Of a DNA stretch of 64,000 nt, positions 25,627-62,266 are shown in pieces; within the stretch, counting starts at the first letter, position 1; each line of letters opens with the position of its first letter. A program made the position numbers and the translations under genes. Source of the stretch: Jaapia argillacea MUCL 33604 (taxonomy: Eukaryota; Basidiomycota; Agaricomycetes; Jaapiales; Jaapiaceae); the NCBI GenBank assembly GCA_000697665.1, contig KL197734.1, positions 225,661 to 289,660 on the forward strand, in the 5' to 3' direction. The notes under the pieces are model-generated. The model worked only from the letters and a program-made list of their open reading frames with translations. It was not told the origin of the DNA and did not search any database.

Positions 25627-26971
25627 TGCCACTCCCAAGTACTTCTGACGCCACACCTCGGGATTGTGAAAACGATGTTGATCGTGGTCCCTCTGTCCAG
25701 TTCGATGTGGGGACGCTCTCAAATAGATCCCATAATGCGCCTATTGACCTTAGTGATAATGTTGTCATCCTACAAGGTCCGTTGCGTGGTGGTGCTGCAT
25801 GTGAGATATATGTGGGGAATCTTTCACTCGATAATGGTTCTGTCGAGAAGGTGGCCATGAAGCAGTTGAGGGCGTTCCTGAATTGGACGGACAAACAGCG
25901 CGCTACGGCAATGCAAGTTCGTCTGGATTCCCTTTACTCTACCTGATCATATTACTTATCTGATGCCGCGTCAGCTGTTTCGAAGGGAAGTAAAAATATG
26001 GTCACGGTTTGACCATCCTCATATCTTGCCCCTGCTTGGCTTCGCACAATTTGGCGATTGCCGTTTCTTTTTGATTTCTCCATGGGTTGAAAATGGCCAT
26101 GTCATGGAATACCTCGAGAGAAAACCAGACACCGATCGGCGAAGACTGGTAGGCTTGTACGCATTCTCGCGCATCGGAGTCTCCGACTGAGCCCTTCGGT
26201 TCAGATCATTCAAGTTGCAGAAGCATTGGAATATCTCCACTCTGGTCGGGCTGGATGTGCTTACGTCCACGGTGACCTCAAGGGGGTGAGCTGTTGATGT
26301 ATCCGCGCCTGTCGGTACTCGCCAGTTAATTATTCTTCTAGGATAACGTGCTCATCTCGGACCACGGGAATGCCCTCCTCTGTGATTTCGGACTGACACG
26401 TCACGTCCAACGAATGGCTTCGATGACTGCCACCCCGTCTGGAATTTCGCCTCTCGGACATATACGTTTCTCTGCCCCAGAACTTTTCAAGTCAGACAAG
26501 CCTACAATGGAGAGCGATGTTTTTGCATTTGGTTGTTTAGCTTTGCAGGTTTGTACTCGATTGAAGTCCGTTGCCGTTGCCGTTAGCCTTGACCCTTGCG
26601 AATAGATCTTCACTGGGCATCTGCCATACAGCCACCTGGCCACTGATCTCCAAGTATTGAAAGCTGTCTCTAGTGGCACGAAGCCTTGCCGACCGATCGA
26701 TGTCGCATCCACCCAAGCGGGACTCACAGATAATTGGTGGGAGCTTATCAACCAATGCTTCAACCGCCGGCCTCCCTCCAGACCGAAGTTCACTGAGATT
26801 TTGGTTCGCGCGAGGAAGATGGATTCCTCTTCGGAGTCAGTGTCTGTTTCATCTGTGCGAGTAGGTGTTTTAATAGTGAACTTCCTTGCCACTCAACTAA
26901 CGCCGCTTCGGCGATGCCAGAGCTTCCGTCAAATTTGGAGAAAGACTTGGATTTCCGTTCGACACCGATAG
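25627..26971 (+). CDS. TKL-type Ser/Thr protein kinase
   Basis: Protein kinase of the tyrosine-kinase-like group expanded in Agaricomycetes. Exons join as MPLPSTSDATPRD..., GPLRGGAACEIYVG (glycine loop), VAMKQL (ATP-binding Lys), LFRREVKIWSRFDHPHILPL, a hinge region FFLISPWVENGHVMEYL, VHGDLKGDNVL (HGD in place of HRD), CDFGLTR, FSAPEL and SDVFAFGCLALQIFTGHLPY, ending in helix WWELINQCFNRRPPSRPKF. Five introns at most. I chose the Met at 25,627 to avoid overlap with the Sel1 stop; the Met at 25,590 is the alternative. The HGD form keeps the catalytic Asp, so activity is plausible. Its 3' part, from IFTGHLPY on, is duplicated at 61,932-62,255. Confidence 0.82.
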
Positions 26972-27334
26972 GTGGCCAGTTGATGAGTCGCGTAGTGGAT
27001 CTCCTCTCGGCGCATTAAGTATTCTATTGCTTCATCTTGTAATCTCGAACCATCTACCCCGTCATTTGGCTTCAACCAACTCGCTACGATAACCCTGTCC
27101 TGGCTACACAAGCTTCTCAGTCTTTTCGAAACAACCCTCTCTCGGTAGAACTGCTTGGCTCGTAAATCCGCTACAGGCAGGACATTCCAATTATCCAATG
27201 GAGCGCCAGCGAATTCACCTGGACAGGTATTCCCCTCAGGGCCTCAAAGACTACGGTGGGGAAAGGTCTGGCAAAAGGAATGGAGTGTGGGTGTTTGGGT
27301 GAGGCGAGAACAGAAAAGATGCACAAACTTACCG
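26972..27334. other. Convergent spacer, kinase / F-box gene
   Basis: 363 bases between convergent genes, the counterpart of 61,522-61,931 in arm B. Only UTR sequence is expected; nothing else was seen. Confidence 0.4.
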
Positions 27335-28732
27335 CTAAAAAGCCAAACTGGCCTTCAATTCAGGAATATTTCTTTGAAGCCTCTCTACTACTTCCTCTCT
27401 AGGCGTTCCGAGGAAGTCGATGCAGCGCAAAGTCGGTGCGACTCGACGGAGAGCTTCCTCGGCCATATCCGACTCGATTTCTACTGAGCTAAGGTAGAGT
27501 TGTTGGAGAGGAGCTCCAGCCATGCAGACGATGATATAATCAAAGTCGGCACCAGAAAAATCCCGAAGGTTCGGCAATTCGCCAGGGAGAAGACCCTTCA
27601 GGAGGCTCAACGGACTATCAACGGCTATACAAGTGTCAATGCATAGATCCTCGATGGAAGGATGTCTGGAGATGAATGTGGTGAAAACATCCGACAGGCA
27701 GGACATTCTCGACAATTCAAGTGTCCGCAACTTGCCCCAGGAAGCGTATCGCAGGAATTCATCAACTCGGGGATGGGTCTCTCCGCCATCGATGGTCAGA
27801 GTGTGTAGGTTCGGCAGAGAACCTGGTGATAACGAAATGTAGACGGGATCCTGATTCAAGGACTCATTGATGGAGCGAGTCAAATGGAGCCTTTGGATTG
27901 TTGGATGAAGAGACAAAAATGAGTCGAAGATTGTGGGATGACATGAAACCTTTTCCAGTCTAAAGGATTCCAAACAAGCCCAAGAGACTTGGTGGAAAAC
28001 GGTGTCGAGAGGGGTGCTGTCACCAAAAGCGAGGGTGAGGAATACGAGGTCGGGACATCGGAGTAGGAATCTTCTTATGTGATCAACTTGAATCGGGGAA
28101 TTTCCCCAGACGGGAGTGGCAATGTATAGATCAAGTTTTACCAGATGCCGAAGGTTGAATATCTAGGAGAGGAGGTGAACTCCCTCGTTGAAGGTCCAGA
28201 GGCCAAGGCCACGTACTTTTGAGTGATAAAGGGTATTTTCGCAGTGATTTCGGAAAGTAGGGAGAAGATAGCACCGGAGGTCACTAAAGCGATGACATGT
28301 CGCAGCGATATTCTCCCAAATCATGTTTTTTGTTTCTGGTTCGTGATACATTTCCCAGGAGAACTTCGTCAAGTTCGGCATCAGGGAGAGAGCCAAAGCA
28401 AGCCGGGACTCTGCAACCACCTCCGCCTCCTTCGTCCTGCAGCAAAATCGATCAAGCGGAAATCTGCGGCGAAGGGAGAGGCGGGGAGAAACCCTAAGAA
28501 TCCTGATGTTCCTACCCAAGTATGGGCGAGCGATGACAGTTTCGAGGGTATCGAGGCGGTCAAGGGAAATGAGCAGCTTCCTATATCGAAGGTGGTCGGG
28601 GATGAGGATGTCGTTAAGGTGGCGACATGTGAGTGCGAGGGATAGGACGTCGGGGCGTTCGTCAACGTAATCAATAACGCGGTCAACCAGTTCGGTTGGC
28701 ATGTCGAATATTGGGAACGAACACGAATTCAT
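27335..28732 (-). CDS. F-box/LRR protein, arm A copy
   Basis: Probable substrate receptor for an SCF ubiquitin ligase. The N-terminus, MNSCSFPIFDMPTELVDRVI, is the F-box (PTELVDRVIDYV...LSLALTCRHLNDILIPDHLRY). The rest consists of leucine-rich units such as FNLRHLVKLDLYIATPVWG, HIRRFLLRCPDLVFLTLAFG, LPNLHTLTIDGG, WGKLRTLELSRMSCLSD and HPSIEDLCIDTC. One intron (GTACGTGG...CCTAG) joins YHSK to IFNLRH in phase 0. The ATG at 28,732 is the first in frame. About 445 residues, intact. The paralogue at 60,127-61,521 is nearly collinear and also intact. Target unknown. Confidence 0.85.
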
Positions 28733-29700
28733 GGTCGCCAAGAGGGATCGATTTTACTCCAACCTGGCGGTCACTGAGGGGGGTAGTCAATTCTGAGAAA
28801 CAAAAGGGAAAACTTCAGTTGCTATCAAGGTCGAGTAACCGAAACGTCAGTCGTAGTCAGAGTAACTAGTGGTGACTCAGAAGTGTGCTGTCGCTGGGCA
28901 ACAGTCACACTAAGTGTGACTCTATTGTAACTCCCATGACTGGGCCATCCTCTTCCATCCTCCGTTCGTCCGAACCTGTTCATCTTGTGTTCACTCCTCC
29001 CAAAGTCATTTTGTACACATGTTTACAGTCCATGTTGGGATAATCTCTTCGAACCACTACCCAGGCTACTTGGAGTGAGTGAGGCCCATCCTCTGTGCGT
29101 CAATAGCTCGACGAGGATCCGTTTCAGAATACATCAACTTGAAGGGCTAGGGTCACTATGCCACCGCAGCTAACTCTACTGAGTAAATATTGTCAGTCAG
29201 ATACTACTCGAAACCTTTCAAATGCCGCCCCCCACCTCCATTGCAGACAACACCTAACGGGCACGACCGAAGAGGGCCTGAAACCTTCCAGAGGAAAGAG
29301 ATCAAGATTAAGTCAGAGGTTCCGAGTGAGAGGTGCTACATTTATCAGCGTTGTATGGGATTGCCCGCGTCTTATGCAGTTTACGAGCAAATACTCTATC
29401 ATGCGATTCCAACATTTCTAGGCGCCTCGGAGAAGCTCCCTACCACTGGAGGCAAGCAAATCTTGTGTCGATTGTCGCTATCGTTCTGGTGGAGTCACTG
29501 CACTCGCTCTGAGACGGATTGTTCGCATAAACTCGGCTCTGATCAGCAACCCGACCATGGTGGGCAGCCCTTGGTCATCCCTCTGAAGAAAATAACTGCA
29601 GTTTCCAACGCTTTTGCATTTTTCAACCACGTTGCTACTGACGCTAACTCTCCCGACCTCATATCGTTGTTATCTATCCTCCGAACAAGTCCCGACGAAT
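28733..29700. other. Arm A non-coding or unassigned DNA
   Basis: Corresponds to 59,300-60,126 of arm B. A 170-residue frame (29,190-29,702 plus) has no recognisable motif and is not conserved as a frame in arm B, so I do not call it a gene. Confidence 0.4.
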
Positions 29701-29716
29701 AGCGCAACTTGAACAT

Positions 29717-29958
29717 AAACCCCACTGGTGTATCGTCCTCCCTCCACCCGGGTTTCCATCACGGCGTCTTCTTCACCGGCGAAATGGTCTCAATTGCCTT
29801 GGGTCTCCTTCGACTCCGGCTGCTCCGACAGGAACGTCGCAGACTTCCCTTTGTCGGCACCTTACATGGCCACCTGCGTCGGCGATGCTATCAAATTTGC
29901 ATATCACTGTCATTCCTTTGTCTCGCTCACCTCCACAGGTCTGGTCCCAGTATCATGA
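29717..29958 (+). pseudogene. Relic of a small secreted protein gene, arm A
   Basis: Frame reading AKWSQLPWVSFDSGCSDRNVAD, then PLSAPYMATCVGDAIKFAYHC. The arm B counterpart reads CSDRNIANVPLSAPCMATCLD. The P-C-x3-C spacing recalls CFEM-type secreted proteins, but too few cysteines are present to name it. At the position of the arm B start codon arm A has ATA, and the first Cys of the pair is Tyr here. I take it as a decayed copy of a once secreted protein gene. Confidence 0.35.
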
Positions 29959-30822
29959 GGCCCTCTTCTAACCTCCGACCAACTCCCGAAGAAAATCATA
30001 AGTTGACTTGCCTGCTTTCGCAAATCCAATGACCGAGTCACCCTACCCCTTCCCCTCCCATTCATGAAAGTTTCAGGGGACATCACTTCTATTCCTCCGA
30101 AGCTCGGTCGATTGGTGCCTGGTCACTTCAATCATCTCCCCGAAGCTCCATCTGGCTTCCTCTCAATTCTTCGGCATTTCACACTTGCGTCAGGAACGTA
30201 TTGAGCTTGGATCGAGATCTATAGATTCCATGCGAAGAATCTCCGTCGGGGAAGATACGTCGCTAGCGCCTCCCTCTATCACCGTAGGTTACTTATAGAC
30301 ACGGGATATGACATGAAGTGGGGGTGAATGATGCAACGGCATTCTGAACTGTGTTGCCACAGCTGACCATTCTCAAACAGTTCGGGATTGAATGCTTGGG
30401 TGTCGTTCGAGACTGCCGGTGGAAGGCCGTTGATCGCATCGTAATGGGAGCGGTGACAATACCTAATACTCGGGTTGCACGGCTGCCAAAACCTCTTTGA
30501 CTGGTTGTTTCCATTCTCCGACGACCCTCTCGATGTGCGTAATGTTTGATGATTCTCGGGTCCAGGTACTCCGGGTTTGATGCGCGAGAAGTAATGGGTA
30601 TATAATCTTCGGTGCAGCGAACATGCTCAATAGCGTTCGCCGGAGAAGTATTGGTATGTACGCCTCTCCTTGTTCCCACTACCTAACTGACTTTGGGTTC
30701 TCCCATCAGCCGTGTTCAATATTTTTGTGTTGATTAACCATCACTTATCCAACCCTCGAGTCAGTCACTTCCTACCTTGACGACCACTTTCTCTCACACC
30801 ATCCACAGCTACACACGCCATC
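29959..30822. other. Arm A unassigned DNA before the peptide gene
   Basis: Matches 58,190-58,950 of arm B. Paired frames (30,293-30,679 minus; 58,417-58,629 plus) share some residues, for example WKQPVxEV, but lie in different frames relative to each other and have no known motif. No gene supported. Confidence 0.35.
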
Positions 30823-30993
30823 ATGAAGTACTTGACCCTCGCCACCATATATCTATTCACACTCATCACCGCAACCACCTCCACACCCATTGAGCCAGTC
30901 CACCCGCCCGTTTGCAACCTTGTTTGTGTTCCACCGAAAGCGACGCTTTGTGCGAACGTTTGCGAGTGCACTATTGGGGTCTGTCCAGATTAA
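30823..30993 (+). CDS. 56-residue six-cysteine secreted peptide, arm A
   Basis: Single-exon gene for a 56-residue precursor. MKYLTLATIYLFTLITATTS is a textbook signal peptide; the mature part of about 36 residues is Pro-rich at first (TPIEPVHPP) and then carries six Cys in the pattern C-x3-C-x8-C-x3-C-x-C-x4-C, ending GVCPD. Arm B preserves the whole frame, all six Cys and the same length, with substitutions mostly in the signal peptide and around the first Cys (30,823-30,993 versus 58,016-58,186). Such short Cys-rich secreted peptides can be effectors, signals or surface-active proteins; none of these is shown here. The family is unknown to me. Confidence 0.72.
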   Translation: MKYLTLATIYLFTLITATTSTPIEPVHPPVCNLVCVPPKATLCANVCECTIGVCPD

Positions 30994-31440
30994 TTACCAC
31001 GATTTGGTATGGGCGGATGTGAAGCCGCTCGTCGTGACTGTTGGATTGGTTGGAGAGATTGGTGTTGGTTCATGACAACTAGCAGGTTTAGACGTTCTCG
31101 TCCAGGAATTAGTTTTACACGTACAGTTTATTTGGTTTTGCGGAGGTGCTTGGGTAACAACCAATGACACTGCTAGCGTTGAAATCTCGGGAACGCAACA
31201 AAGCGAGATTGATACATTGAAGAGGGTACTTTGGTGGATGGGAAGGACTGGCGGATGAGCAAGACTACAACGCAGAATTGCACTAGTGATATGATTGAAC
31301 ATGCGCCACGATTGCTCGCCAAGGCATGAAAAAGACATGGAGTGGTTAGGGGTAATGAGCAGGGTTAGGGGTCACGTGACCATGCTTTGGCGGGTCCTCG
31401 CAAGTCCACGGAGTCCCGGACCAGACAGTCCTCCTCCTCC
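30994..31440. other. Spacer, peptide gene to TSR3
   Basis: 447 bases containing the TSR3 promoter; paralogous to 57,711-58,015 in arm B. No other gene seen. Confidence 0.4.
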
Positions 31441-33119
31441 ATGGCCAAGAAGAACTCCAACTCGAGCTCGAGCTCGTCAAAACACCGGTCATCGAAATCA
31501 ACGTCTTCCCGACACTCGCATCGGCAGCCGTCACGATACTCACACAAGACCCAACAAGACGATCATGTACGACCAGACAGTGCCGTCGACGAGGTCCATG
31601 TAGATGACGGTGCAGATGACGATGTTGACGACGATGATCAACGTCCGTGCTGCCTGTCCTCATGCTGCGTCGTAGCTGACTTGTTCTGAAGCATCATCCC
31701 AGATCGAGATCAAAGTACCTGTAGCCATGTGGGTCCGTATCCCTTCCCAATCCCATTCCATCTATCCTCATTTCTTCTCAGGATTTTGATCATTGCGATC
31801 CTCGAAGATGTTCCGGCAAGAAACTCGCTAGGCTGGGCTTGATTAAAGAACTCAGAGTGGGCAGTCGCTTTCGAGGCATAGTCCTTTCGTACGTCTCATC
31901 GCACCTACAACAATCCCCCATCTCATCCACCCACAGACCTAAGGGAACCCAAATAGTTTCTCCAGCAGATCGCGAAATAGTTCTCGCAGGTGGTCTAGCA
32001 GTCGTCGAATGTTCGTGGGCAAGACTCGACGACGTTCCTTTCAACAAAATATCAAGTCCACACGAAAGACTACGTGCGGCTCCCTTACCTCCTCTCCGCT
32101 ACTTCTCATCCTCATCCCCCCATCCCACTCCCCTATAGTCCCATACCTCCTCGCATCAAATCCAACAAACTACGGTAAACCATACCGTCTAAACTGTGTC
32201 GAAGCCCTCGCAGCTGCCTTCTATATCACTGGTTTTCCAGAGTACGCGGAGAGAGTCCTTGGAGGGTTCGGATGGGGTGGCGGGTTCTGGGAACTTAACA
32301 AGTGAGTGTATTCTTTTGGTGGTGTCGTGGAGAGGCGGGATAGTTGGTTTGTCGGGAGGCCTTCCAGGAGGCAGTTCGGAGATGGATCGGAGGAGGGTAT
32401 ATGCGCTCGATGTGTGGCTATATGCGCGATTTGGGTGATTATGCCTTCGATGTGGGGGTATATACGCTCGAATTATGGTATACACGATCGTATACACCCC
32501 GCTCATAGAGATTTCGAGATTGGCTTTATGCTCCCGACTTAACCTGGTTTTCCAACGTCTTCCATTCTCCTCCCTCATTCATATCAATACTAACATCCCC
32601 CTCTTCTCCCTCTCAACCCCAAATTCAGAGATTTCCTGACAGCATACCAAACCACTACTTCTTCCGCTTCCATCGCTTCCACCCAAGCTCGCATAATGGA
32701 AGAACTGGAGGAGAGTTGGAGGGAGAGAAGGGGAGGTTCGTCTCTCTCTTTTCCCCCTATTTTATCTTCTGTTCTCCCCGTTTCATTCCCCAATCCTCGG
32801 TCTCTTCCGGCCCTTGTCTTCTACTTTTTCTCCCTTTAACCTTCTTGGTTGTGGCTTCTACACCTCCATCTCGTTTCCACCTTTACCCCTCATTCTCTCA
32901 TTCCAGACCACACTGACTCTCCTTCACTTTATAGCTAACAATACGGAATACGGAGATGACTTATTAGTCGCTAACCCTAACCACCAATCGCAACATCCTG
33001 GCTTCATAGAGGAAGCGGACGATGAAGAGGGACCGCCGGATTCTGACGAGGAGGAGGAGGGAGAGCAGGGCAGTGAAGATGTACAAGGAAGGGAAGGAGG
33101 GAGGAGGAGGAGCACGTGA
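31441..33119 (+). CDS. TSR3: TSR3, 18S rRNA aminocarboxypropyltransferase
   Basis: SPOUT-like enzyme that transfers the 3-amino-3-carboxypropyl group of S-adenosylmethionine to a hypermodified pseudouridine of 18S rRNA, in late cytoplasmic 40S maturation. N-terminus [17 protein letters not shown] is Ser/Arg/Lys-rich with an acidic end. The core is unmistakable: [103 protein letters not shown] and [20 protein letters not shown]-terminal acidic tail ends EGGRRRST. About five introns; the donor of intron 1 near 31,601-31,652 is ambiguous, and intron 3 (about 32,302-32,627) is unusually long and holds a tandem repeat. It is the only intact copy in the window. Confidence 0.92.
32393..32496 (+). 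repeat. Degenerate tandem repeat in a TSR3 intron
   Basis: About four to five imperfect units of the type GTATATGCGCTCGA-x(5-9) within the long intron. The matching DNA in the arm B relic (about 57,298-57,390) keeps the motif with a different unit count, so it existed before the duplication and has since varied. Confidence 0.55.
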
Positions 33120-33980
33120 GATTGGCTTGGGAGTGAGTGTATTTGAGGCTTGTTCTTCGATTTCGTCTATTGAGCTTCTTTGCGATTTGTGTTGTAGTGG
33201 ATTATCTGACATTTACGTGTTTTTTTCCTCCAGCCTTACTCGACTTGACTCTCAACGCTGGTTAACTTGATGTTAGGAAGAGGATCCAATGCACATCTCA
33301 CTGGCGCCTTCCTCAGTTCCTCCGGATGGGTAGTCGCCACCTCTCCAGCGCAAAGAGATCATTTCACGATCAGATTCGCTCATCATCAACCGCAACCATT
33401 GTTCAATGAGAGTGATGATAGGAGAGCTCACGGGCAGTTCAAACTTTGGTCCACTGGTGCACCGCAATCTGGTTCCGGTATGGTGGCTGTGCAAAATATT
33501 CAATTTTCTCGGATTTTTGTTGGGCATGTTTCGCTGCCTTCGACGGCGAGTTATGATTTCATGGTGGTTCTTTGGATGTCCCAAAGTGCTGGCTGCGCAT
33601 GTCCAGTGACAGACGGGAGTGATACAGATCTCTAGGGCATCGTGGGGCGGTGTCGTCGGTCAGGCTGTGCACCGGGTGAAACATGCTATGCTTCCCCTGC
33701 CATCGCGACAGCCTCGGTTCCGTGTCGACAATGCTAACGTTGTTACATCCTTCGAGAGGTAAGGATCAAGGTGATCGTCCCATAGCCCATTCCCATCAAA
33801 CTGGCGGTACGCTTTACTGTTGATCAATGGCACATCTTGAAACCTATCCAGGCTTGCCGTGGGCCCATCAGAGGGGAAAGTATAAAGAGGTCGACCTAGA
33901 GTGGTTGGATTCTCATCAGCTTCCTCACCCCAGCAGTTCAAGTAACTACACACCTCCTTCCCTCAAACAAAACATTCGAG
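33120..33980. repeat. Upstream block of SSP copy C
   Basis: 33,270-33,640 is a copy of the block also found at 19,980-20,280, 22,050-22,460 and 55,180-55,490. A plus-strand frame of 122 residues (33,267-33,635) is open here but not in the other copies, so it is probably not a gene. Promoter of the SSP gene follows. Confidence 0.5.
33881..33889 (+). promoter_or_regulatory. TATA box of SSP copy C
   Basis: TATAAAGAG, 92 bases before the start codon, matching the other intact copies. Confidence 0.7.
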
Positions 33981-34538
33981 ATGATGTTCATCAAGTCCCT
34001 ATTTGTCGTCGCTACCGTCGCCTTGTCCGCCATGGCGCAGACCGTCACCATCGGTGCCCCTGCTGCAGGCATCAAAACTTGCGCAGGTTGTTACCTGAAC
34101 GTCGAAATCGATAGGCCGGTAAGTCTTTATTTCCTTTCCCTTAGGAGTGACAAGCATGCTCACGACGCACGTCTCACACCAGAACTTCCAATCGAGTTCA
34201 CAAGAAGTCTCCGTCATTATCGCCATGCAATCATGCAACTCGGGAGGCTGTGTCGGCGCCGAGAAGTCCCATGGGACAGTCCTGTATGCGGGTCCCTACA
34301 ACCCACAATATAGCACCACGTTCGACTACAAGCCTCCTCATCAAAACTTCACTGTTGAAGTCCCGACGTTCTTTATCACGGGCCAAGCAGTGTTGAGCGT
34401 GACGCATTTCGCGTTGGTCGGCGTAAGTCATATTTCATGTAAGCTGAGGCGAAGGAGCGATACTGATGGGGTTTTGATGGATAGGCTGGTTTGGAACCGT
34501 TTTTGGAATATAAGAATGTTACGGTTAATATTGCCTGA
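33981..34538 (+). CDS. Small secreted protein, VTIG family, copy C (arm A)
   Basis: Intact three-exon paralogue with signal peptide MMFIKSLFVVATVALSAMAQ. Mature start TVTIGAPAAGIKTCAGCYLN, then NFQSSSQEVSVIIAMQSCN, YNPQYSTTFDYKPPHQNFTV, GQAVLSVTHFALVG and the end AGLEPFLEYKNVTVNIA. Introns at GTAAGTCTTT...CACCAG and GTAAGTCATA...GGATAG. Its mirror copy in arm B is copy E. STTFDY (others STTVDY) is shared with the fragment at 41.3 kb. Function unknown. Confidence 0.8.
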
Positions 34539-35239
34539 GGGATTGGGTTCATGGCTGTCATAGACGACTCGGGACTTTAGTGAAATGGACCTCATACCGT
34601 AGATCTTAGACGACTCGGCCTTTCACATGACTTATTATAAATGATTGGTCTTGAAATTGAATCAATGGATGTATCATCAATTCCGCGGAATGCCATGATG
34701 AAGGGCTCGAACAACCAATTAGCGTCGTTGCCTTACCGGTTTGATAAATACGGTCCACCACGATGCCTAAAAAGGAAGGATGAGATCCAACGGCATTTGC
34801 CGACGCTGCGTTCCCTCGCTAATAATCAATCCCTGCAACTCTGGCTCATCTGCTGACCACCTACTCTATCATCCTTCTTAGATCGTAATCGTAACTCCTT
34901 AGTGCTGTCTATCTTCATTCAGTTGTAAACTGCCCGTACAAGACGAACAAGCCCGAGTCAATCTTCTTTAACCACCGAACCCAAGTTGCATCGCGGGACC
35001 GACAGTGGCTTTCTCTTCCCTCTGAAAACTGCACATAGCGCTTTTCAAGGTTGCACCATATATATGGCATGATTCTATCTCTCCTGTCAGCTGCATGGCG
35101 TGCATATATCCTTGCTGCACTAGGCCTCATCCAACCACATAAGTACTCACTTTTATTGAGCAATTGAGTCTATTCGGACATCGCAGTTCCCGTTCTTCTC
35201 TGGTGCTATATTTGATATCCCAACCTAACTAATTCGCCT
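34539..35239. other. Downstream block of SSP copy C
   Basis: Non-coding DNA that also follows SSP copies B and E (20,640-21,119 and 53,700-54,218). The conserved pieces contain no stable open frame. Confidence 0.5.
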
Positions 35240-35831
35240 CACTTCTATTACTAGAGATGACGAACATCGAGCACCTATTCATCACAGCCTACACGACCAC
35301 GAAACCCTCGCCCCACCCTCCTTACCCCAGGCATTCTCCTCACCTCCGAAGTTCCATCCTCCCACCATGAAAACGAAGAGCATCACTTCCGCATAAACGC
35401 CACCTACCAACCTTTCGATCCCTCGAAATCCGCGGCACCGTGACTCCCTCCAGCCAAACAGCTCACCCTCCCGACTTAACGACGACTTTTACCAGTTCGA
35501 AATCAAGCTTCTATCTGCACTTCCTCTGGAGAGCGGTCGTGAGTCCCCGCATCCACGAATTATACCATATATGTCTGGTCCATTTGGTGGTCGTATTGAT
35601 AGAGCCGCGACGGTCCACAGACGGTCGGAGTTGGACACGTATTTGTATGGGCTTTGCTCGTTTTTGAAGACGAGCTCGTGGTATAGGTTGGAACATCGCC
35701 TTGTTGCGGAGTTTCTTAGTATCAGGCCTGGTGATGTAGAAGTTGACGTTGATCCGAGGGTGGAGGAGATGAGAGCGTTGGGCAACGGGAAGATCACCTC
35801 CTTGATCCTGTTGCGGAGATTTGAGGATTAG
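35240..35831 (+). pseudogene. Bem1-type PX domain relic, arm A
   Basis: Fragment of a polarity scaffold gene of the Bem1/Scd2 type. Visible pieces: HHENEEHHFRINATYQPF, PPAKQLTLP, DDFYQFEIKLLSALPLESG, an intron-like GTCGTGAG..., RIIPYMSGPFGG, RRSELDTYLYGLCSF, LEHRLVAEFLSIRPGDVEVD. These match the PX domain of that family. The SH3 domains upstream and PB1 domain downstream are not seen, and the frame is interrupted before DDFYQF. The mirror copy in arm B is also broken, so the fragment was probably already non-functional before duplication. Confidence 0.6.
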
Positions 35832-52654: not shown

Positions 52655-52898
52655 GAACCAACTGGAAAGCGTGGGCCCTTGTAGTGATCGACCTCTTCGA
52701 CAACGACCCTGCCTCTGCTTCGATTTTCAATTCAGGCCCTTCCCATGTGCCACCCGGATAGCCGTATCGATCATCCAGTTCCAGCCCGAGTAGACTGAAG
52801 TATAGGAGACGACAAGAGTGTCAACTAGTCTACAACGCAATGCACGTTCCAACCACCTGTATCTGTCCTCCTGATCTTCTTCCTCAACGATGACACCA

Positions 52899-53460
52899 TC
52901 ACCAGTTTATCGCGACATCTGCCCTAATTCTCAAATCTCCATCAAGGAGGTGATCTTCCTGTTGCCTCAACGCTCTCGTCTCCTCCGCCCTTGGATCAAC
53001 GTCAACTTCTACACCACCAGGCCTGATACTAAGAAACTCAGCAACAAGGCGATGTTCCAAGCTATAACACGAACTCGTCTTCAAAAACGAGCAAGGCACA
53101 TACAACTACGTGTCCAACTCCGACCGTCTTTGGGCCGTCGCGGCTCTATCAATCCGACCTCCAAATGGACTAGGCATATATGGCAAAATCCGTCGATGTG
53201 AGGGTTCACGACCGCTCTCCCGAGGAAGTGCAGATAGGAGCCTGATTTGGAACTGGTAAAAGTCGTTGTAAAGTCAGGAGGGTGAGCTGTTTGGCTGGAG
53301 GGAGTGCTGCGGAGCTCGAGGGATCGAAGATGGCATTTATGCGGAACTGATGCCCTTCGTTTTCATGGTGGAAGAATGGGACTTTGGCGGTGAGGAGAAT
53401 GCCTGGGGGTAAGGTGGGTGGGGCGGCGTGTCGTGGTCACTGGTCGTGTAGGCTGTGATG
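52899..53460 (-). pseudogene. Bem1-type PX domain relic, arm B
   Basis: Mirror of 35,240-35,831. Pieces: PGILLTAKVPFFHHENEGHQ, FRINAIFDPSS, PPAKQLTLL, FYQFQIRLLSALPRESG, RRSELDT followed by a stop, LEHRLVAEFLSIRPGGVEVD. More damaged than the arm A copy: the PX core is interrupted by a stop where arm A has Tyr in DTYLYG. SH3 and PB1 regions are absent. Confidence 0.6.
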
Positions 53461-54218
53461 AATAGGTGACGCGATGTTCGTCATTCCTGGTAATAGAAGT
53501 GAGGCGAATTAGGTAGGTTGGGATATCAAATATAGCACCAGAGAACGACCGGGAACTGCGATGTCCGAATAGACTCAATCGCTCGATAAAAGTGAGTACT
53601 TATGTGGTTGGATGAGGTCTAGCACTCGACAGTGCAGCAAGGGTATATGCGCCCTATGCAGTTGACCGGAGAGATAGAGTCATGTCATATCTATGGTGCA
53701 ATCTTGAAAAGCGCCATGTGCAGTTTTCAGAGGCAAGAGATGGCCACTGCTGTTGGAGAAGTTCCGGGATCCAACTTGGGGTCGGTCGTTAATAGTAAAG
53801 AAGATTGACTTGGACTTATTCGTATTATACGGACGGTTTTCAACTGAATGAAGATCTACAGCACTCAGGAGTTACGATTATAATCCAAGTAGGATCATAG
53901 AGCAGCCTGAGCTGAGCAACAGGTGAGCCGGAGTTGGAGGGATTAATTGGGGCGAGAGAACGCAGCCTCGGTAAATACCATTGGATCTCATCCTTCCCCT
54001 CTCAGGCTTCGGGTGAACCGTATTTATCAAACCGGTAAGGCAACGGCGGTGATTAGCTGTTCGAGTCCTTCGTCACGATATCCCTTGGCAATGAAGCTAC
54101 ATCCATCAATTCGGTTGTAATGGAATCAATTACATAAGTTATGCACAAGTCCTCTAAGATCTATTGTGTGAGGTCCATTTCTCTAGCACTCATCGATGAC
54201 AGCCACGAACCCCATCCC
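53461..54218. repeat. Downstream block of SSP copy E
   Basis: Non-coding DNA shared with 20,640-21,119 (same orientation) and 34,539-35,200 (inverted), including a stretch around TTTTCAACTGAATGAAGAT. No gene seen. Confidence 0.5.
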
Positions 54219-54774
54219 TCAGGCAATATTAACCGTAACATTCTTATATTCCAGAAACGGTTCCAACCCAGCCTATCCATCCAAACCCAATCAGTATCGC
54301 TCTCTCGTCAAAGGTTGAGTTAAATAAGACTTACACCGACCAACGCGAAATGCGTCACGCTCAACACCGCTTGGCCCGTGATGAAGAACGTCGGAACTTC
54401 AACAGTGAAGTTCTGATGAGGAGGCTTGTAGTCGACCGTCGTGCTGTATTGTGGGTTGTAGGGGCCCGCATACAGGACTGTCCCATGAGACTTCTCGGCA
54501 CCGACACAACCTCCCGAATTGCATGATTGCATGGCGATAATAACGGAGACTTCTTGTGAACTTGAGAGGAAGTTCTGATACGAGACAAATCGTGAGTATG
54601 CTTGTGAATCTTGAAGGGATGGGAATAGTTACTCACCGGTCTATCGATTTCAACGTTCAGGTAGCAACCCGCACATGTCGTGATGCCTGCAGCAGGGGCG
54701 CCGATGGTGACGGTCTGCGCCATGGCGGACAAGGCGACAGTAGCAGCGACAAACAGGGACTTGATGAACATCAT
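54219..54774 (-). CDS. Small secreted protein, VTIG family, copy E (arm B)
   Basis: Intact three-exon paralogue, mirror partner of copy C. Signal peptide MMFIKSLFVAATVALSAMAQ, mature start TVTIGAPAAGITTCAGCYLN, NFLSSSQEVSVIIAMQSCNS, YNPQYSTTVDYKPPHQNFTV, GQAVLSVTHFALVG, then AGLEPFLEYKNVTVNIA. It shares NFLSSSQ and ITTC with copy A although it lies in the mirror position of copy C, which suggests exchange between copies. Function unknown. Confidence 0.8.
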
Positions 54775-54867
54775 GTCGAATTTTTCGTTTGAGGGAAAGA
54801 GGTAAGTAGTTGCTAGAATGGATGGGTGGAGAGGAAGCCGATGAGAATTAAACCACTCCAGCTCGAT

Positions 54868-54878
54868 CTCTTTATACC
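54868..54878 (-). promoter_or_regulatory. TATA box of SSP copy E
   Basis: GGTATAAAGAG on the minus strand about 100 bases before the start codon, as in copies A to C. Confidence 0.7.
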
Positions 54879-55563
54879 GTCTCCTCCATTGCGCTCGCAC
54901 AAATCGGACAGGTTTCGAGATGCCTGCGCCGTTGATCAACAGCAACAACGTACCGCCGGTTTGATAGTGATCAGCTATGGAATGATCACCTCTATCTTCG
55001 TCTCTCAAAGAATGTAACAACGTTAGCATTGTCGACTCGGAACCGAGGCTGTCGTGATGGCAGGGGAAGCATAGCATGTTTCCCCCGGCACACAGCCTCA
55101 CCAACGACACTGCCCAAAAATCCCCTAGCCATCCGTACCACTCCCGTCTGTCGCTGGACATGCGCAGCCAGTATTCTGGGGCATCCAAAGAACCATCATG
55201 AAATCATAACTCGCCGTCGAAGGCAACGAAACATGCCCAACAAAAATGCGAGAAATTCAATATTTATGCACAGCCACCAAACGGAACCGGGATTGCAGTG
55301 CATCAAAGGACAAAAGATTGAACTGCCCGTGGATTCCTAGTCGACCATCGTTCCCAGTCTCGTTCATTTAACACTGGGGCCATGGTGGCGGTCGGGGATG
55401 AGCGAATTTGATCGTGAATACAACCACCCATCCGGAGGAACTGAGGAAGGCGCTAGTGAGATGTGCATCGGATCCTCATCCTAACGTCAAGTTAGTGGCA
55501 CATACCTTGAGGCTTCTCAGCGTATTGAGTCAAGTTGAGTAAGGCTGGAGGAAAAAACACGTA
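54879..55563. repeat. Upstream block of SSP copy E
   Basis: Mirror of 33,200-33,870. The block 55,180-55,490 is the fourth copy of the degenerate repeat upstream of each SSP gene. No gene supported. Confidence 0.5.
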
Positions 55564-56609
55564 ACGTACCTCACCCACAAGACGGTCACACCGGGAAGAT
55601 GGTCATTCAGCTTTTGCCACTCGAAGACCCAAAATCCCAGACCATAAATATTCATCTACAATGTACGACATGTTCTTGTGCAATCGACTAAGCGGCGTGG
55701 CCAACAGTGCTGCAGGGGTGCTGTAGCATGTCTTCAAAAACATCGATATGTTAGGAATTCTCGAATTTCAAATGCTCCTGATTGAATTGGCAACATCCCA
55801 AAGTCAACGTTGTAGAGAGTCAAGTGTGTATCGCTGCCCATCCTTATCTAAACCTCGTAGAGTAGTTGCATGGTACTCTGCACTGAGCCAATCTGATTTG
55901 AACAATGGGCAACGGGTCGCTGGGTTGATGTCGAATGACCGCATTCCGGGTAGGACAGCCACCGGTGGCTGAAAATGGACACAAAAATGTTTCGACAGTT
56001 GATTATTCTATCGCGCAGTGAGGTACGAGCGTAGCATATCAGCACGTCACACTTGTGACCACAGTCTCTCATCTCCTGCCACCACGACAAACGGCGCTCA
56101 TTGCGCCTTTCGTTTGCTAACTTTCTTGCTCGCTATTTTCTTTTCCCCACCCTCCACTCCCTTTTCTTCTTCCTCCTTCCATTCTGCACTATTTGCCCTG
56201 TCAATAGCTCCTGGTCATCTTCCTCCTATTGTAATCTTACTACATCTGTCAAGTTGTACCTACGAATGCGTGGAGTATCCCACCCACCCATCGCAGTGTA
56301 CTTCGGATATCTCTCATAGTCCAGGACCTGTGTGCGGGGCCGGAGAGCGCTCACGCGATTTCACCTGTATCGCTTGCTACGCTATGCTAGCTTCCTACAT
56401 TCCTTATTGATAAGTCCTTTCCATTACTCGTGCGACCAGTGCCAAGTCAAAGTGGTACAACCAGCGAGCAAGCGTAGACCTCACAATTTTGGGGCATGAC
56501 AGAGAAGATACCATATTGTCAGCATATGCACAGAATTCAGATAAACCTGCTGTCGTTGTTGAAATCAGGAATTAAAATCAAAACTTGACCGTCTTGTGGG
56601 TGAGGTACG
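55564..56609. mobile_element. 1.05-kb TIR element present only in arm B
   Basis: Bounded by 25-base terminal inverted repeats that match perfectly: 55,564-55,588 (ACGTACCTCACCC...) and the reverse complement of 56,585-56,609. Arm A has an empty site at about 33,213-33,230, where the flanks of the element (CACGTA on the left, AAGTGT-AGATAATCC on the right) are contiguous apart from point changes. The flanks are TA on the left and CA on the right, compatible with a TA target duplication that has since mutated, as in Tc1/mariner-like elements; this is weak. No transposase motif is seen, so it is non-autonomous. Confidence 0.75.
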
Positions 56610-56707
56610 TCAAGTGTTAGATAATCCCCTACAACATAAGTGGTAAAGGAGCTCAAGAAACGTTATAGAGAACAAGCCTCAAATATAACCTCACTCCCAA
56701 GCCAATC

Positions 56708-57710
56708 TCACGTACTCCTCCTTCTCCCTCCTTCCCTTCCTTGCGAATCTTCACTACTCGACTCTCCCTCCTCGTCAGAATCCGGTGGTCCCTCTTCATG
56801 TTCGTCTTCTTCTATGAAGCCAGGACATTGCGATTGGTGGTTTGGTTTGGCTACTAGCAAGTCATCTCCGTATTCCGTGTTGCTAGCTGTAAAGTGAAGG
56901 ATTGTCAGTTCGGTCGGGAACGGGGGGAGGGGTAAAGGCGGAACCGAGATAAAGGTGTAGAAGCCACAACCAGAGGAGTCAAGTAATCAAGATAAGGGTC
57001 AAAAGAGCACTGAGGATTTGGGAACGAAACTCGGAGTACAGAGGTAAAGAATAATAGGAGGACAAGAGAGTGACGAACCTCCCCTTGTCTCCTCCAACTC
57101 TCCTCCAGTTCTTCCATTACGCAGGCTTGGGTAGAAGCGATGGAGGCGGAAGAAGTAGTGGTTTGGTATGTTGTTGGGATGTCTCTGAGTTGGGGGTTGT
57201 AAGACGTTAGCATCGAATGAGGAGAACGGAGAAGTTCGAAAGGTAGATTAAGTCGGGAGCGCAAAGTCAATCTCGAAATCTGAGCTGGCGTATAAAATCG
57301 CATTGGTATACCCGCGATTCGAACGTATATACCCCCAATCCAAACGCAAATCGAGCGCATATAGCCCACATCAAACGCATATAACCTCCTCAATCCATCA
57401 TTACACTGCCTCCGCGAAGGCGTCCCGACACACCAAGTCTTCCTTGCTCCTCACAAAACCACAAAAAGCATATACTCACTTGTTAAGTTCCCAAAACCCA
57501 CCACCCCATCCGAACCCTCCGAGGACTCTCACTACGACGCGGCATCAAGAGAGGCAACACGGACGTTGGTCGTCGTCGTCTACATTTGATTGTCCATGTG
57601 AGTCTTGCTGAGTCTTGTGCGAGTATCGCGATGGCTGCCGATACGAGTGACGGGATGACGTCGATGTCGATGACCGGCGAGCTGGAGTTCGAGTTGGAGT
57701 TCTGCACCAT
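56708..57710 (-). pseudogene. TSR3 relic, catalytic core deleted, arm B
   Basis: Mirror of the intact TSR3. It keeps the Ser/Arg-rich N-terminal region ([20 protein letters not shown]...[11 protein letters not shown]), then jumps to [16 protein letters not shown] and the C-terminal exons ([14 protein letters not shown]..., [11 protein letters not shown]). About 575 bases, equal to 31,677-32,251 of arm A, are missing, taking the SAM-binding and catalytic core from DFDHCD to FPEYAE. The N-terminal frame is also shifted. It cannot encode an enzyme. Confidence 0.88.
57298..57390 (-). repeat. Intron tandem repeat of the TSR3 relic
   Basis: Counterpart of 32,393-32,496: units around GCGCATATA / CGTATATACC with different number and spacing. 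Confidence 0.5.
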
Positions 57711-58015
57711 CGAGGAGGCGGAGTAAGTGGTCCAGTACTCCAGGGACTTGCGAGACCAATGCTCATGTGACTCCTAACCCTACCCATTACCCCTAACCAC
57801 ACCACGTCCCTGGGTGCCTCAATTTCACATAAGTAGTTGCTTTCGAGATATTTCAGCACTAGTGTCATCCGTTGGTACCCAAGCACCGCCGCAAAGCCAA
57901 ACCGTACATGCACAAATAATCCTAGAAGAGCACGTCTAACCAGCTCCTACGAACCAGTACCAATCCAAGAGTCATGACGAGCGGTTCCAAATCCAACCAT
58001 ACCAAATCGCGGCCA

Positions 58016-58186
58016 TTACTCTGGACAGAACCCGATAGTGCACTCGCAAACGTTCCCACAAAGCGTCGCTTTCGGTGGTACACAAACGAGGTTGCAAGGG
58101 GGCGGGTGGATTGGCTCAAAGGGTGCGGAGATAGTCGCAGTGATGAGGGTGGATAGGTATATGGCGGCGAGGGTCAAGCACTTCAT
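58016..58186 (-). CDS. 56-residue six-cysteine secreted peptide, arm B
   Basis: Mirror partner of 30,823-30,993, same length and single exon. MKCLTLAAIYLSTLITATIS is the signal peptide, then APFEPIHPPPCNLVCVPPKA, TLCGNVCECTIGFCPE. The six mature Cys keep the pattern C-x3-C-x8-C-x3-C-x-C-x4-C; one extra Cys lies in the signal peptide. Most differences from arm A are substitutions with no indel, while flanking DNA carries indels and the neighbouring TSR3 is wrecked, so the frame appears to have been kept by selection. Function unknown. Confidence 0.72.
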   Translation of the reverse strand: MKCLTLAAIYLSTLITATISAPFEPIHPPPCNLVCVPPKATLCGNVCECTIGFCPE

Positions 58187-58979
58187 GATGGCGTGTGTAG
58201 CTGTCGATGGTGGAAGAGAGAAAGTGGTCGTTAAGGTAGAAGCTGAATCGAAGGTTGGACCAGCGGTGGTTTAATCAAGACACAAGGACTGGTTGGAGGT
58301 CACAAAGTCAGCTAGGGTACGGAAACAAGGAGGGCATACACACCGATACTCCTACTGTGAGTGTTACAGAGCATCCTGACTGTACCCAAGATCACATACC
58401 CATGACTTGAATTCTGGTGTCAACGAGCGTTCTGTCTTACCGCGCATCAAACCCAGAGCACCCAAGGACCCGGGAATCATCAAGCATTACTCACGTCGAA
58501 TGGGTCGTCGGAGAATGGAAACAGCCAGTTGAAGAGGTTATGGCAGCCATGCAACCGACGGTTGGGTATTGTCATCGCTCCCCCTACAATGCGATCGACG
58601 GCAGTCTCGAACGACACCAAATCGTTTGATCCCGCGCGGTTTGAGAAAGGTCAGCTGTGTCAACGCAGTTCAGAATGCAGTTCCATCATCCAAACCCACT
58701 TCATATCATCTCCCCTGTCTATAAGTAACCCATAGCGATCGAGATGACGTATCTGTCACCACGGAGATTCTTCGCATGCAATCTATAAATATGGGTGCAG
58801 AGCTCAATACGTTCCTGACGCGGTTGTAAAATGCCGAAGCATTGAGTGGAAGACAGAAGGAGCTTCGGGGAGATGATTGCAGTGATCAGGCACGGTGCCT
58901 CTTGATCAAGCTTCGGAGGAATAGAAGTGATATCCCCTGAAACTTCTTCAATGGGAAGGAAAGCGGTAGGGTGACTTGA
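58187..58979. other. Arm B unassigned DNA
   Basis: Counterpart of 29,990-30,820. A 70-residue frame at 58,417-58,629 is not conserved as a frame in arm A. No gene supported. Confidence 0.35.
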
Positions 58980-59294
58980 TCACTGGATTTGGAAAGCAGA
59001 CTTCTTCGGGAGTTGGTCGGAGGTTGGGAGAGGACTCCTGATACTGGCACCAGACCTGTGTAGGTGAGCGAGATAAGGGAATGATAGTGATGTGCAAATT
59101 GGATGACATCGTCGAGGCAGGTGGCCATGCAAGGTGCCGACAAAGGAACGTTTGCGATGTTCCTGTCGGAGCAATCGGAGTCGAAGGGGTACGTAAGGCA
59201 ATTGAGACCATTTCACCAGTGAAAAACATACCACGCTGGAAATCCCGAGTGTGGAGAGTACGATAAGTAGTTCAAAGAGACCGGTTGGTTTCAT
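58980..59294 (-). pseudogene. Relic of a small secreted protein gene, arm B
   Basis: Has a start MKPTGLFELLIVLSTLGISS that looks like a signal peptide, then a one-base shift relative to arm A before FDSDCSDRNIANVPLSAPCM, ATCLDDVIQFAHHYHSLISL. Both arms together suggest an ancestral secreted protein with a P-C-x3-C motif, vaguely CFEM-like. Each arm carries a different defect. An intron could in principle hide the shift, but no suitable acceptor was found. Confidence 0.38.
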
Positions 59295-60126
59295 GTTCAA
59301 GTTGCGCTATTCATCGGGAATTGGTCAGAGGATAGGGCTATGGGCTGGTACGAAATAGAGAGTTGGCGTCAGTCGCGAGCAATGTGACTGAATAATGAAA
59401 AGGTGCTAGAAACTACAGCAATTAGTTATCAGAGGGATAAACAAGGACTGCCCACCGTGTAATCATTACGAGTTTAAGTGACTCCAGCCACCGAACGACA
59501 ACAAGATCCGACAATCGACGTAACTTGTGAAAACGTTGGAATCGCATGATGGTGTCTTGGCTCACAAATTGAGCCACATGAGACTTGCGTAAGCTTATAC
59601 ACCGCTGATGATCAGACGTGTTTCGAAGTATTGTCTGCAATAGAGTTGGGGGCGGCATTTGAAGACCTTCGTCACGTAGCACTTCGAGTAGTGTCGGACT
59701 GGCGCTGTTCCCAACCAGTGTTAATTGGGGTGGTCCTTCAAGTTGATGTTTTCTGAAACGGATCGTCGGGGCTATGAGAATACGGAATGTGCTCCACTAA
59801 CCCAAGTACCGGGTAGCGACTCAAGTAGAGTCATCCCCACGCAGACTGTAAACAGGTGCACAAAGTGGCTTTAGGAGGGATGAACAGGTCGGGCGAGCGC
59901 CGACTCGGAGAGGACTCAGAGTATGGAGTGACTGGCGTCACAGCGGAGTCACGACCGGTGTGATTGAGGCCGAGCATTCTTGAACAGTACTTTTTTTACT
60001 ACCTACGACAGACGTTCCTGTTAGTCGATCTTTATAGCAACTGAAGTATTCCCTCTTGTTTCTTAGAATCGACTACGCCCCTCAGTGACCGCCCAGGTTG
60101 GAGTAAATCGATCCCTCTTGGCGACC
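59295..60126. other. Arm B intergenic DNA before the F-box gene
   Basis: Counterpart of 28,733-29,700, containing the F-box promoter. A minus-strand frame (59,422-59,682) lacks motifs. Nothing else supported. Confidence 0.4.
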
Positions 60127-61521
60127 ATGAATTCGTGTTCGTTTCCAATATTCGACATGCCAACCGAACTGGTTGACCGCGTTATTGACTATGTTGACGA
60201 ATGTCCCGATGTCCTATCCCTCGCACTCACATGTCGTCATCTCAAAGCCATCCTCATCCCCGACCACCTTCGATATAGGAAGCTGCTCATTTCCCTTGAA
60301 CGCCTCGACATCCTCGAAACTGTCATCACCCGCCCATCCTTGGGTAGGAACATCAGAATTCTTAGGGTTGTTCCGCGCATCGGGCTTTACCGTAGATTCC
60401 CTCTCGACCGCTTTTGCTGTAGGACGAAGGAGGCGGAGATAGCTGCGGAGTCCCGGCTGGCTTTGGCTCTCTCCCTGATGCCGAACTTGACGAAGTTCAT
60501 GTGGGATATGTATCACGAACCAGAAACCAAAAACATGATTTGGGAGAATATCGCTGCGACATGTCATCGCTTTAGTGACCTCCGGTGCTATCTTCTCCCT
60601 ACATTCCGAAATCACTGCGAAAATACCCTTTATCACTCAAAAGTACGTGACCTTGGCCTCTGAACCTTGGATGAGGGAGTTCACCTTTCCTAGATATTCA
60701 ACCTCCGACATCTGGTCAAAATTGATCTATATATCGCCACTCCCGTCTGGGGCAATTCCCCGGTTCAAGTTGATCACATCGGAAGATTCTTGCTCGGATG
60801 TCCAGACCTCGTCGTCCTCACCCTCGCTTTTGGGCATAGCACCCCTCTCGACACCGTTTTCCACCAAGCCTCTTGGGCATGTTTGGAATCCTTGAGACTG
60901 GAAAAGGTTGCATGCCATCCTACAATCTTCGACTCATTTTTGTCTCTTCATACAACAATCCAAAATCTCCATTTGACTCACTCCGTCAACGAGTCCTTGA
61001 ATCAGGACCCCTTCGATATTTCGTTATCACCGGGTTCTCTGCCGAACCTACACACTCTGACCATCTATTGCGGAGGGCCCCATCCACGGATTGACGAGTT
61101 CCTCCGATACGCTTCCTGGCGCAAGTTGCGGTCGCTTGAATTGTCAAGAATGTCCTGCCTATCAGATGTTTTCGCCAAATTCCTCTCCCGACATCATTCC
61201 ATCGAGGAGCTATGCGTTGACACCTGTATAGCCGTTGATAGTCCATTGAGCCTCCTGAAGGACCTCCTCCCTGGCGACTTGCCGAACCTTCGAGATTTTT
61301 CTGGTCCTGACCTTGATTATATCATCGTCTGCATGGCTGGAGCTCCTCTCCAACAACTCTACCTTAACTCAGTGGAAATCGAGTCGGATATGGCCGAGGA
61401 AGCTCTCCGTCGAGTCGCACCCACTTTGTGCGACATCGAATTCGTCGGCACGCCTAGAGAAGAAGTCGTGGAGAGGCTGAAGAGGAGTATTCCTGAATTG
61501 AAGGCCAGTTGGGCTTATTAG
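60127..61521 (+). CDS. F-box/LRR protein, arm B copy
   Basis: Paralogue of 27,335-28,732, intact. MNSCSFPIFDMPTELVDRVI, with F-box and the same single intron after YHSK (GTACGTGACC...CCTAG) leading to IFNLRHLVKIDLYIATPVWG. LRR units include CPDLVVLTLAFGHSTPLDTV, LPNLHTLTIYCGGPHPRIDE and APLQQLYLNSVEIESDMAEE; it ends PELKASWAY. Both arms thus keep full-length, slightly different F-box proteins, which is consistent with retention of both as receptors. Confidence 0.85.
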
Positions 61522-61931
61522 AAGTAAGCTTGTGCTTCTTTTCTGTTCTCGCCTCAGCCGGACACCCACACGCTCCCTTCCTTTTGCCAGACCTTTCCCC
61601 ACCAGTCCTCTAGGGGTCAATGTTGAATACCTGTCCTCGTGAATTCGCCGGTGCTCCATTGGATTGTCCTGTCAGTAGCCGATTTACGGGCTGAGCAGCT
61701 CGGCCGAAAGAGGTTGGTTTCTAAAAGACCGAGAAGCTTGTGTAGCCAGGGCAGTGTTATGGTAGCGAGTTGCGGTTGAAGCCAAAAGATGGGGCGAATG
61801 TTTCGAAGTTACAAGATTGAAGCAATAGAATACTTGATACACCGAGAGGAAATCCACTACGCGGTTCATTCATTGGCTACCAGTCGGTGTCGAACGGAAA
61901 TCCCTGTCTTTCTCCAGATCTGACGGAAGTT
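61522..61931. other. Spacer, F-box B to kinase fragment
   Basis: Mirror of 26,972-27,334. No gene seen. Confidence 0.4.
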
Positions 61932-62255
61932 CTAGCATCGGCGGAGCGGCGTGGGCTGATTGGCAAGGAAGTTCACTACTAAAATACCTACTCTCACATA
62001 TGAAACAGACACTGACTCGGAAGAGGACTCCATCTTCCTCGCGCGAGCTAAAATCTCATCGAACTTCGGTCTTGGAGAAAGCCTACGGTTGACGCATTGG
62101 TTGATAAGCTCCCACCAACTATCTGCGAGCCCAGCTTGGGCGGATGTCGCATCTGTAGGTCGGCGAGGCTTCGTGCCACTAGAGACAGCTTTCAATACTT
62201 GGAGATCGGTGGCCGTATGGCCGTATGGCAGATGCCCAGTGAACTTGAAGATCTA
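61932..62255 (-). pseudogene. 3' fragment of the TKL kinase, arm B
   Basis: Encodes only the last part of the kinase domain: FTGHLPYGHTATDLQ, VLKAVSSGTKPRRPTDATSA, WWELINQCVNRRLSPRPKFD, EILARARKMESSSES. The glycine loop, Lys, HGD and DFG motifs are absent because homology begins at the last intron/exon border. It joins the HNH fragment within about 12 bases. Confidence 0.85.
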
Positions 62256-62266
62256 ATCGGATGTGT

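What the first reader, a model, noticed from the sequence alone, without database searches (positions are those of the whole stretch)
26604..62256. Large inverted segmental duplication with 9.5-kb arms around a 16.5-kb loop
At least eight blocks in 26,604-36,110 recur in mirrored order and opposite strand in 52,655-62,256. Divergence is clearly visible at base level, indels differ between arms, and each arm has its own later events, so this is an old duplication and not an assembly echo of one haplotype. Large inverted repeats of this kind can cause loop inversions, hairpins and dicentric breakage, and can be homogenised by gene conversion.
Basis: seen in the sequence. Interest (0 to 1): 0.85.

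Follow-up and report, generated by a model that had tools for sequence, protein, structure and literature searches.

The report
Old inverted duplication in fungal DNA
A stretch of a fungal chromosome was copied in reverse near itself long ago; the two copies have drifted about 16% apart, some copied genes survive and one has lost its core, and the neighbourhood is full of similar local copies, so it is real but ordinary.

Summary
The inverted duplication is real. Arm 1 (26588-36104) and arm 2 (62270-52650) align along one anti-diagonal, 83.9% identical over 8,380 sites; 10 shuffles gave at most 33.7 bits. A haplotype echo is unlikely.

(1) Beyond arm 2, 62271-62577 is an inverted copy of 18742-18452; 7.8 kb between was lost or never copied. 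(2) The loop is not neutral spacer: 53% of it, continuing arm 2, is an inverted copy of a third locus 130 kb upstream. (3) The Tsr3 domain was found only in arm 1. F-box, small cysteine-rich and Nis1-family genes are open in both arms (Ka/Ks 0.25 for F-box, 0.04 for Nis1). (4) The longest exact arm-arm match is 74 bp, so frequent loop inversion is unlikely; two stretches look like past gene conversion.

The arms are the longest of 27 local duplication pairs of 1.5 kb or more in 269 kb of this contig. Likely origin: one inverted duplication of fold-back or sister-fusion type in a duplication-prone region, then decay. A new instance of a known kind.

The parts
18452..18742 (+). Block x: 3' part of an HNH_2-like gene (open frames 17306-18819); partner of 62271-62577
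   Evidence: blastn 78.8% inverted; K2P 0.202 over 291 sites; HNH_2 E 0.001, below the Pfam cut-off
18924..20588 (-). Copy A: Nis1-family gene block plus a 64-81-bp remnant of the Tsr3 3' end (20508-20588)
20633..22351 (-). Copy B: Nis1-family gene block, tandem to A; its homology to arm 1 ends at 35037, just before block Z
26588..36104 (+). Arm 1 (holds the only Tsr3 core found in the genome)
25785..26892 (+). Protein kinase-like gene (extent read by eye, not modelled); arm homology starts inside it at 26588
   Evidence: PF07714 E 2.4e-11 at 26342-26602, E 0.0068 (below cut-off) at 26606-26968
27335..28732 (-). F-box/LRR-like gene of arm 1, 447 aa, one 54-bp intron
   Evidence: F-box and LRR hits below curated cut-offs
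30823..30993 (+). Small cysteine-rich protein, 56 aa, secreted by reading only, arm 1
   Evidence: open frame; arm-2 partner
31441..33119 (+). Tsr3-like gene (extent approximate, whole gene not modelled)
   Evidence: PF04068 E 6.7e-12 and PF04034 E 2.7e-23; PF04034 found nowhere else in the genome; PDB 5ap8 TSR3 E 1e-5
33981..34538 (+). Nis1-family protein gene of arm 1, 143 aa, two introns
   Evidence: PF19271 E 4.8e-12
35044..36104 (+). [not shown]
   Evidence: the arm-1 frame itself has no Pfam hit
36105..41331 (-). Loop, left part: inverted copy of C26:129660-125064 (blocks D and part of G), interrupted at 37308-39491
37308..39491 (.). Multi-copy repeat insertion with ~160-bp inverted stretches (37461-37620/39225-39383)
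41334..41771 (+). Fragment of the Nis1-family gene block
   Evidence: 80% to arm 1 34204-34647
42216..44030 (-). Block H: hydrolase-like by eye, no Pfam hit; copies at 62582-63650 and C26:289679-290926
44103..46613 (.). Multi-copy repeats around the assembly gap N 44535-45085
46734..52568 (-). Loop, right part (block G, with a GH5-like frame): inverted copy of C26:126747-120715, followed by arm 2's Z as at that locus
52650..62270 (-). Arm 2, inverted partner of arm 1
54219..54774 (-). Nis1-family protein gene of arm 2, 143 aa, open
55558..56611 (.). Extra sequence in arm 2 only: repeat with inverted ends, apparently with a second repeat nested in it
56607..57808 (-). Tsr3 remnant of arm 2; core deleted
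58016..58186 (-). Small cysteine-rich protein, 56 aa, arm 2, open
60127..61521 (+). F-box/LRR-like gene of arm 2, 447 aa, open, one 51-bp intron
   Evidence: hits below curated cut-offs
62271..62577 (-). Block x': inverted copy of 18742-18452, next to arm 2's outer end
62582..63650 (-). Partial copy of block H
   Evidence: 82.9% to 42929-44030

Best explanation
An old inverted segmental duplication in what looks like a filamentous fungus (phylum not tested), inside a chromosome stretch where blocks are copied locally again and again. Call the blocks, in arm-1 order, x, K (kinase), F (F-box), S (small cysteine-rich), T (Tsr3), P (Nis1-family), Z (Bem1-like PX remnant), G (GH5-like) and D (membrane-protein-like, by eye). 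The window reads x...K F S T P Z | D' G' (with inserts) Z' P' T' S' F' k' x', primes meaning inverted. Shown: arms, block order, the third locus carrying Z-G-D in one piece, the Tsr3 copy without its core, and open F, S and P in both arms. Inferred: the inverted copy K..Z-G-D was joined to the end of Z in one event of the fold-back or unequal sister-chromatid-fusion kind, or a longer palindrome formed and lost its centre on the arm-1 side. Afterwards arm 2 lost the stretch between K and x and the core of Tsr3, repeats inserted, and short gene conversion touched P and perhaps Z. I see no function of the structure itself; its likely effect is gene copy number: extra F-box, small cysteine-rich and Nis1-family copies, of which F-box and Nis1 have Ka/Ks well below 1.
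For: Single mirrored chain of 8,488 aligned columns, end-to-end alignment. Same order of Z-G at the third locus and at arm 2 plus loop: window-relative -106136 to -98913 against 53708 to 46736, and -100596 to -96000 against 41329 to 36105. Block x/x' in the expected order and strand. Tsr3 domain PF04034 only at arm 1 in the whole genome, 2 exon matches of 2 candidates scored. F-box pair: 447 aa each, Ks 0.261, Ka 0.064, ratio 0.25; P pair: Ks 0.334, Ka 0.014, ratio 0.04. Five of six non-coding blocks of the arms have K2P 0.19-0.28, the sixth 0.40. 27 chained pairs of at least 1.5 kb in 269 kb, 13 inverted and 14 direct, so local copying is common in the region. Human fold-back inverted duplications have a single-copy spacer between the two copies in 21 of 21 sequenced junctions, 766-70,466 bp (PMC3907307, abstract and passages).
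Confidence: 0.75

Rival explanations
1. Stepwise origin: a direct (tandem) duplication of the segment, followed by inversion of one copy together with the G-D stretch, or several smaller duplications, rather than one inverted-copy event.
For: The region holds both direct and inverted pairs (14 and 13); P copies A and B are a tandem pair; block Z has another apparent age; P copies are about equally distant.
Against: The arm chain is colinear from K to Z and again at x, with similar divergence in five of six non-coding blocks; an inversion needs a second pair of breakpoints, which I did not see.
Confidence: 0.2
2. Assembly artefact: the second arm is the other haplotype of a dikaryon, or a scaffold wrongly joined across the 551-bp gap.
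For: There is a gap N 44535-45085 in the loop, and the order of the right half rests on scaffolding over it.
Against: Arms end inside gapless sequence next to different flanks; the Tsr3 domain is found at one place in the genome; 16% divergence with different insertions; G sequence lies on both sides of the gap in the same orientation relative to the third locus.
Confidence: 0.05
3. The whole is one large mobile element whose arms are its terminal inverted repeats.
For: Long inverted arms around a loop; repeats with inverted ends lie inside.
Against: The arms hold ordinary genes; the two arm pieces searched genome-wide (26588-29145 and 29146-33200) match only the two arms, apart from 64-66% matches and one 80-bp match in the F-box region; the outer ends lie inside host-like genes; no transposase among the 29 frames or proteins scanned with Pfam, which is a small part of the window.
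Confidence: 0.02

Closest known systems
Fold-back inverted duplications with a single-copy spacer (human CNVs, PMC3907307, abstract and passages)
   Same: Two inverted copies around a spacer that is native neighbouring sequence, with one novel joint
   Different: Here old (K2P 0.18), not known to be next to a terminal deletion, spacer continues arm 2, and the joints are blurred by later insertions and deletions
Segmental duplications of fungal genomes (PMC5576322, PMC11835900: titles and abstract openings in search listings only)
   Same: Copied chromosome segments within a fungal genome; details of those papers not read
   Different: This one is inverted, local and about 84% identical, below the 90% that is the usual cut-off (recalled)
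Nis1 family of secreted fungal proteins (PF19271; NIS1-like effectors, PMC10442039, abstract opening in a search listing)
   Same: The P gene: arm-1 protein E 4.8e-12; arm 2, A and B ring in the genome search
   Different: Role in this fungus unknown; the organism and its lifestyle are not named here

Membership tests
Inverted segmental duplication | Two non-transposon copies of at least 1 kb, colinear, opposite strand | tested here: met
   the two arm pieces searched genome-wide have no other full-length copy
Inverted segmental duplication | At least 90% identity (usual cut-off, recalled) | tested here: not met
   83.9%; so an old, decayed one rather than one under the strict definition
Fold-back inverted duplication (PMC3907307) | Spacer of native, non-duplicated neighbouring sequence between the copies | tested here: inconclusive
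   The G-D part of the loop continues arm 2 as at the third locus, but part of G is itself duplicated (39683-41331/46734-48310) and the rest is inserts
Fold-back inverted duplication (PMC3907307) | Short inverted homology at the joint | tested here: inconclusive
   2 bp at most by eye at 36104|36105; joint too old to judge
Fold-back inverted duplication (PMC3907307) | Dicentric intermediate and terminal deletion | not testable with these tools
   needs population or experimental data
Recombinationally active inverted repeat | Long stretches of near-identity between arms | tested here: not met
   longest exact run 74 bp; 18 runs of 30 bp or more
Recombinationally active inverted repeat | Both loop orientations in related strains | not testable with these tools
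   no relatives held for this genome
Nis1 family (P gene) | Score above the Pfam gathering cut-off over the domain | tested here: met
   46.9 bits against cut-off 27, profile 1-114 of 114, for the spliced arm-1 protein; exon-wise genome matches of arm 2, A and B stay below the cut-off

The most novel reading that the evidence does not exclude
The two arms, though already about 20% diverged at non-coding sites, exchanged sequence: block Z and its 5' flank passed from arm 2 (where it had arrived from the third locus with G and D) into arm 1 by copy-type repair between the inverted arms, so that widely spaced, diverged inverted repeats in a fungal chromosome acted as repair templates for each other in a region that also multiplied a Nis1-family gene.
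Probability: 0.2. Interest if true: 0.45.

Novelty: new member of a known kind. Interest (0 to 1): 0.25.

Why it matters

Tried and rejected
Plasmid collection: no match. A truncated kinase was first taken as proof that arm 2 is the derived copy; rejected, since block x' suggests that arm 2 once reached further. A target-site duplication for the loop repeat (37308-39491) was looked for by eye and not found. Constraint as the reason for the low divergence of Z stays open: codon-position counts lean to third positions (5, 9, 14 of 28 arm-arm differences), but the 5' flank at 35100-35279 is 92-97% identical in 60-base steps, which argues for a younger split. Recent arm-wide homogenisation: rejected, five of six non-coding blocks have K2P 0.19-0.28 and the sixth 0.40. 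Naming H a hydrolase and D a membrane protein rests on reading; no hit at or above a Pfam cut-off. Repeat-induced point mutation was not tested by sequence context. Literature searches were read as listings: 20 of 120 papers listed; 20 of 167; 12 of 37; 10 of 140; 10 of 35; 8 of 918; I make no claim that such a case is absent from print.

Full report
Observation. The window lies at C26:225661-289660 of a 43.7-Mb, 95-contig genome. Short introns and gene content look like a filamentous fungus; the phylum was not tested. Self-comparison shows a mirrored series of six blastn blocks between 26588-36104 and 62270-52650, which a global alignment joins end to end: 83.9% identity over 8,380 aligned sites, K2P 0.184, 807 transitions and 546 transversions. 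Ten Markov shuffles of the window give best inverted hits of at most 33.7 bits. The finding is therefore real.

Genes in the arms. From the outside in: 3' part of a kinase-like gene (PF07714); an F-box/LRR-like gene (F-box-like E 9.9e-5 in arm 1, 8.2e-4 in arm 2, both below the curated cut-off); a 56-aa cysteine-rich protein, secreted by reading only; a Tsr3-like gene (PF04068 and PF04034 above cut-off; PDB TSR3 E 1e-5); a Nis1-family protein (PF19271); and block Z, whose copy at the third locus is open over 188 aa and matches the Bem1 PX domain (E 1.2e-9; PF00787). The arm-1 frame of Z has no Pfam hit.

Fates. The F-box gene is 447 aa and open in both arms, Ks 0.261, Ka 0.064. The Nis1-family gene is 143 aa and open in both arms, Ks 0.334, Ka 0.014 (counts by a simple method, no formal test). 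The small cysteine-rich gene is open in both arms (arm 1, arm 2); its selection was not measured. The arm-2 Tsr3 copy lacks 574 bp that hold its core, and PF04034 rings nowhere else in the genome than at window 31938-32308, so arm 1 carries the only Tsr3 core found; the whole arm-1 gene was not modelled. Arm 2 alone has about 1.05 kb of extra sequence, a repeat with inverted ends and apparently a second repeat nested in it: its outer parts match C13 and C3 at 94-97%, its inner part C1, C23, C12, C8 and C4 at 79-97%.

Larger anatomy. A sensitive search against 262 kb of the contig, extended to 269 kb, changed the picture. First, 62271-62577 is an inverted copy of 18742-18452, next to arm 2's outer end and in the order expected if the inverted copy once reached 18452; the 7.8 kb between are absent from arm 2, with a short stretch of unmatched bases at the joint. 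Second, a third locus at C26:119524-129660 holds Z, G and D in one piece. Arm 2's Z' and the loop follow it colinearly and inverted, from 53708 down to 46736 and again from 41329 down to 36105. In sum 8,856 of the 16,545 loop bases (53%) align to that locus (sum of six blocks). The rest of the loop is repeats (37308-39491; 44.1-46.6 kb), a 438-bp fragment of the P block, block H, unassigned sequence, and the gap N 44535-45085. Arm 1 has Z but not G-D next to it: at 36104|36105 Z abuts the end of D'. That joint lies in gapless sequence.

Mechanism. The simplest reading is one inverted-copy event that joined the end of Z in one copy to the end of D in the other, as in fold-back or unequal sister-chromatid fusion, or a longer palindrome that lost its centre. 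In 21 of 21 sequenced human junctions a single-copy spacer of 766-70,466 bp separates the copies (PMC3907307, abstract and passages). The likeness is in anatomy only; here the spacer continues the opposite arm, and the joint is too old to read. A tandem duplication followed by inversion is the main rival.

Consequences today. The longest exact arm-arm match is 74 bp and 18 runs reach 30 bp. That makes frequent loop inversion unlikely, though in a yeast system with long single-stranded DNA spacing of 30 kb made little difference and only heterology beyond 25% suppressed instability (PMC10164571, abstract only).

How unusual. In 269 kb of the contig (14,232 of them N) there are 27 chained pairs with at least 1.5 kb aligned, 13 inverted and 14 direct; pairs within one gene family count several times, so these are not 27 events. 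The arms are the longest (8,488), followed by the third-locus pair (7,053, inverted) and a tandem pair (6,334). The share of sequence in local copies of 300 bp or more is 0.55 in each of the two 32-kb bins that cover 13-77 kb, 0.01 in the bin just before, and 0.21-0.51 in the other complete bins. So the finding is the top of a local continuum.

Verdict. Confirmed, extended, and ordinary in kind: an old inverted segmental duplication, new as an instance.

Noticed in passing
C26:119524-129660 (L046, L042) and window 36105-53708: A third, inverted copy of blocks Z-G-D lies 130 kb upstream, before several related genes (membrane-protein-like by eye; two frames scanned, no Pfam hit).
   Followed up: partly
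window 18924-22351: Tandem pair of Nis1-family gene blocks with a Tsr3 3' remnant between them; copy B's homology ends where the arms' P block meets Z.
   Followed up: partly
window 33981-34538 and copies: Four of nine genome matches to the Nis1 family (PF19271) lie in this window; others on C42 (2), C20 (1) and C13 (2).
   Followed up: partly
window 39683-41331 and 46734-48310: Direct repeat flanking the middle of the loop, 85% identical in one part and 95% in the other.
   Followed up: no
C26:299346-313194 (L034, L035): Tandem duplication chain with 6.3 kb aligned at 79%, outside the window; further gene arrays lie beyond it.
   Followed up: no
window 30823-30996 and C26:293665-293832 (L033): A third, 68% similar copy of the small cysteine-rich gene outside the window.
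   Followed up: no
C1:2577146-2577603: 67% match to the Z part of arm 2, perhaps the parent Bem1-like gene.
   Followed up: no
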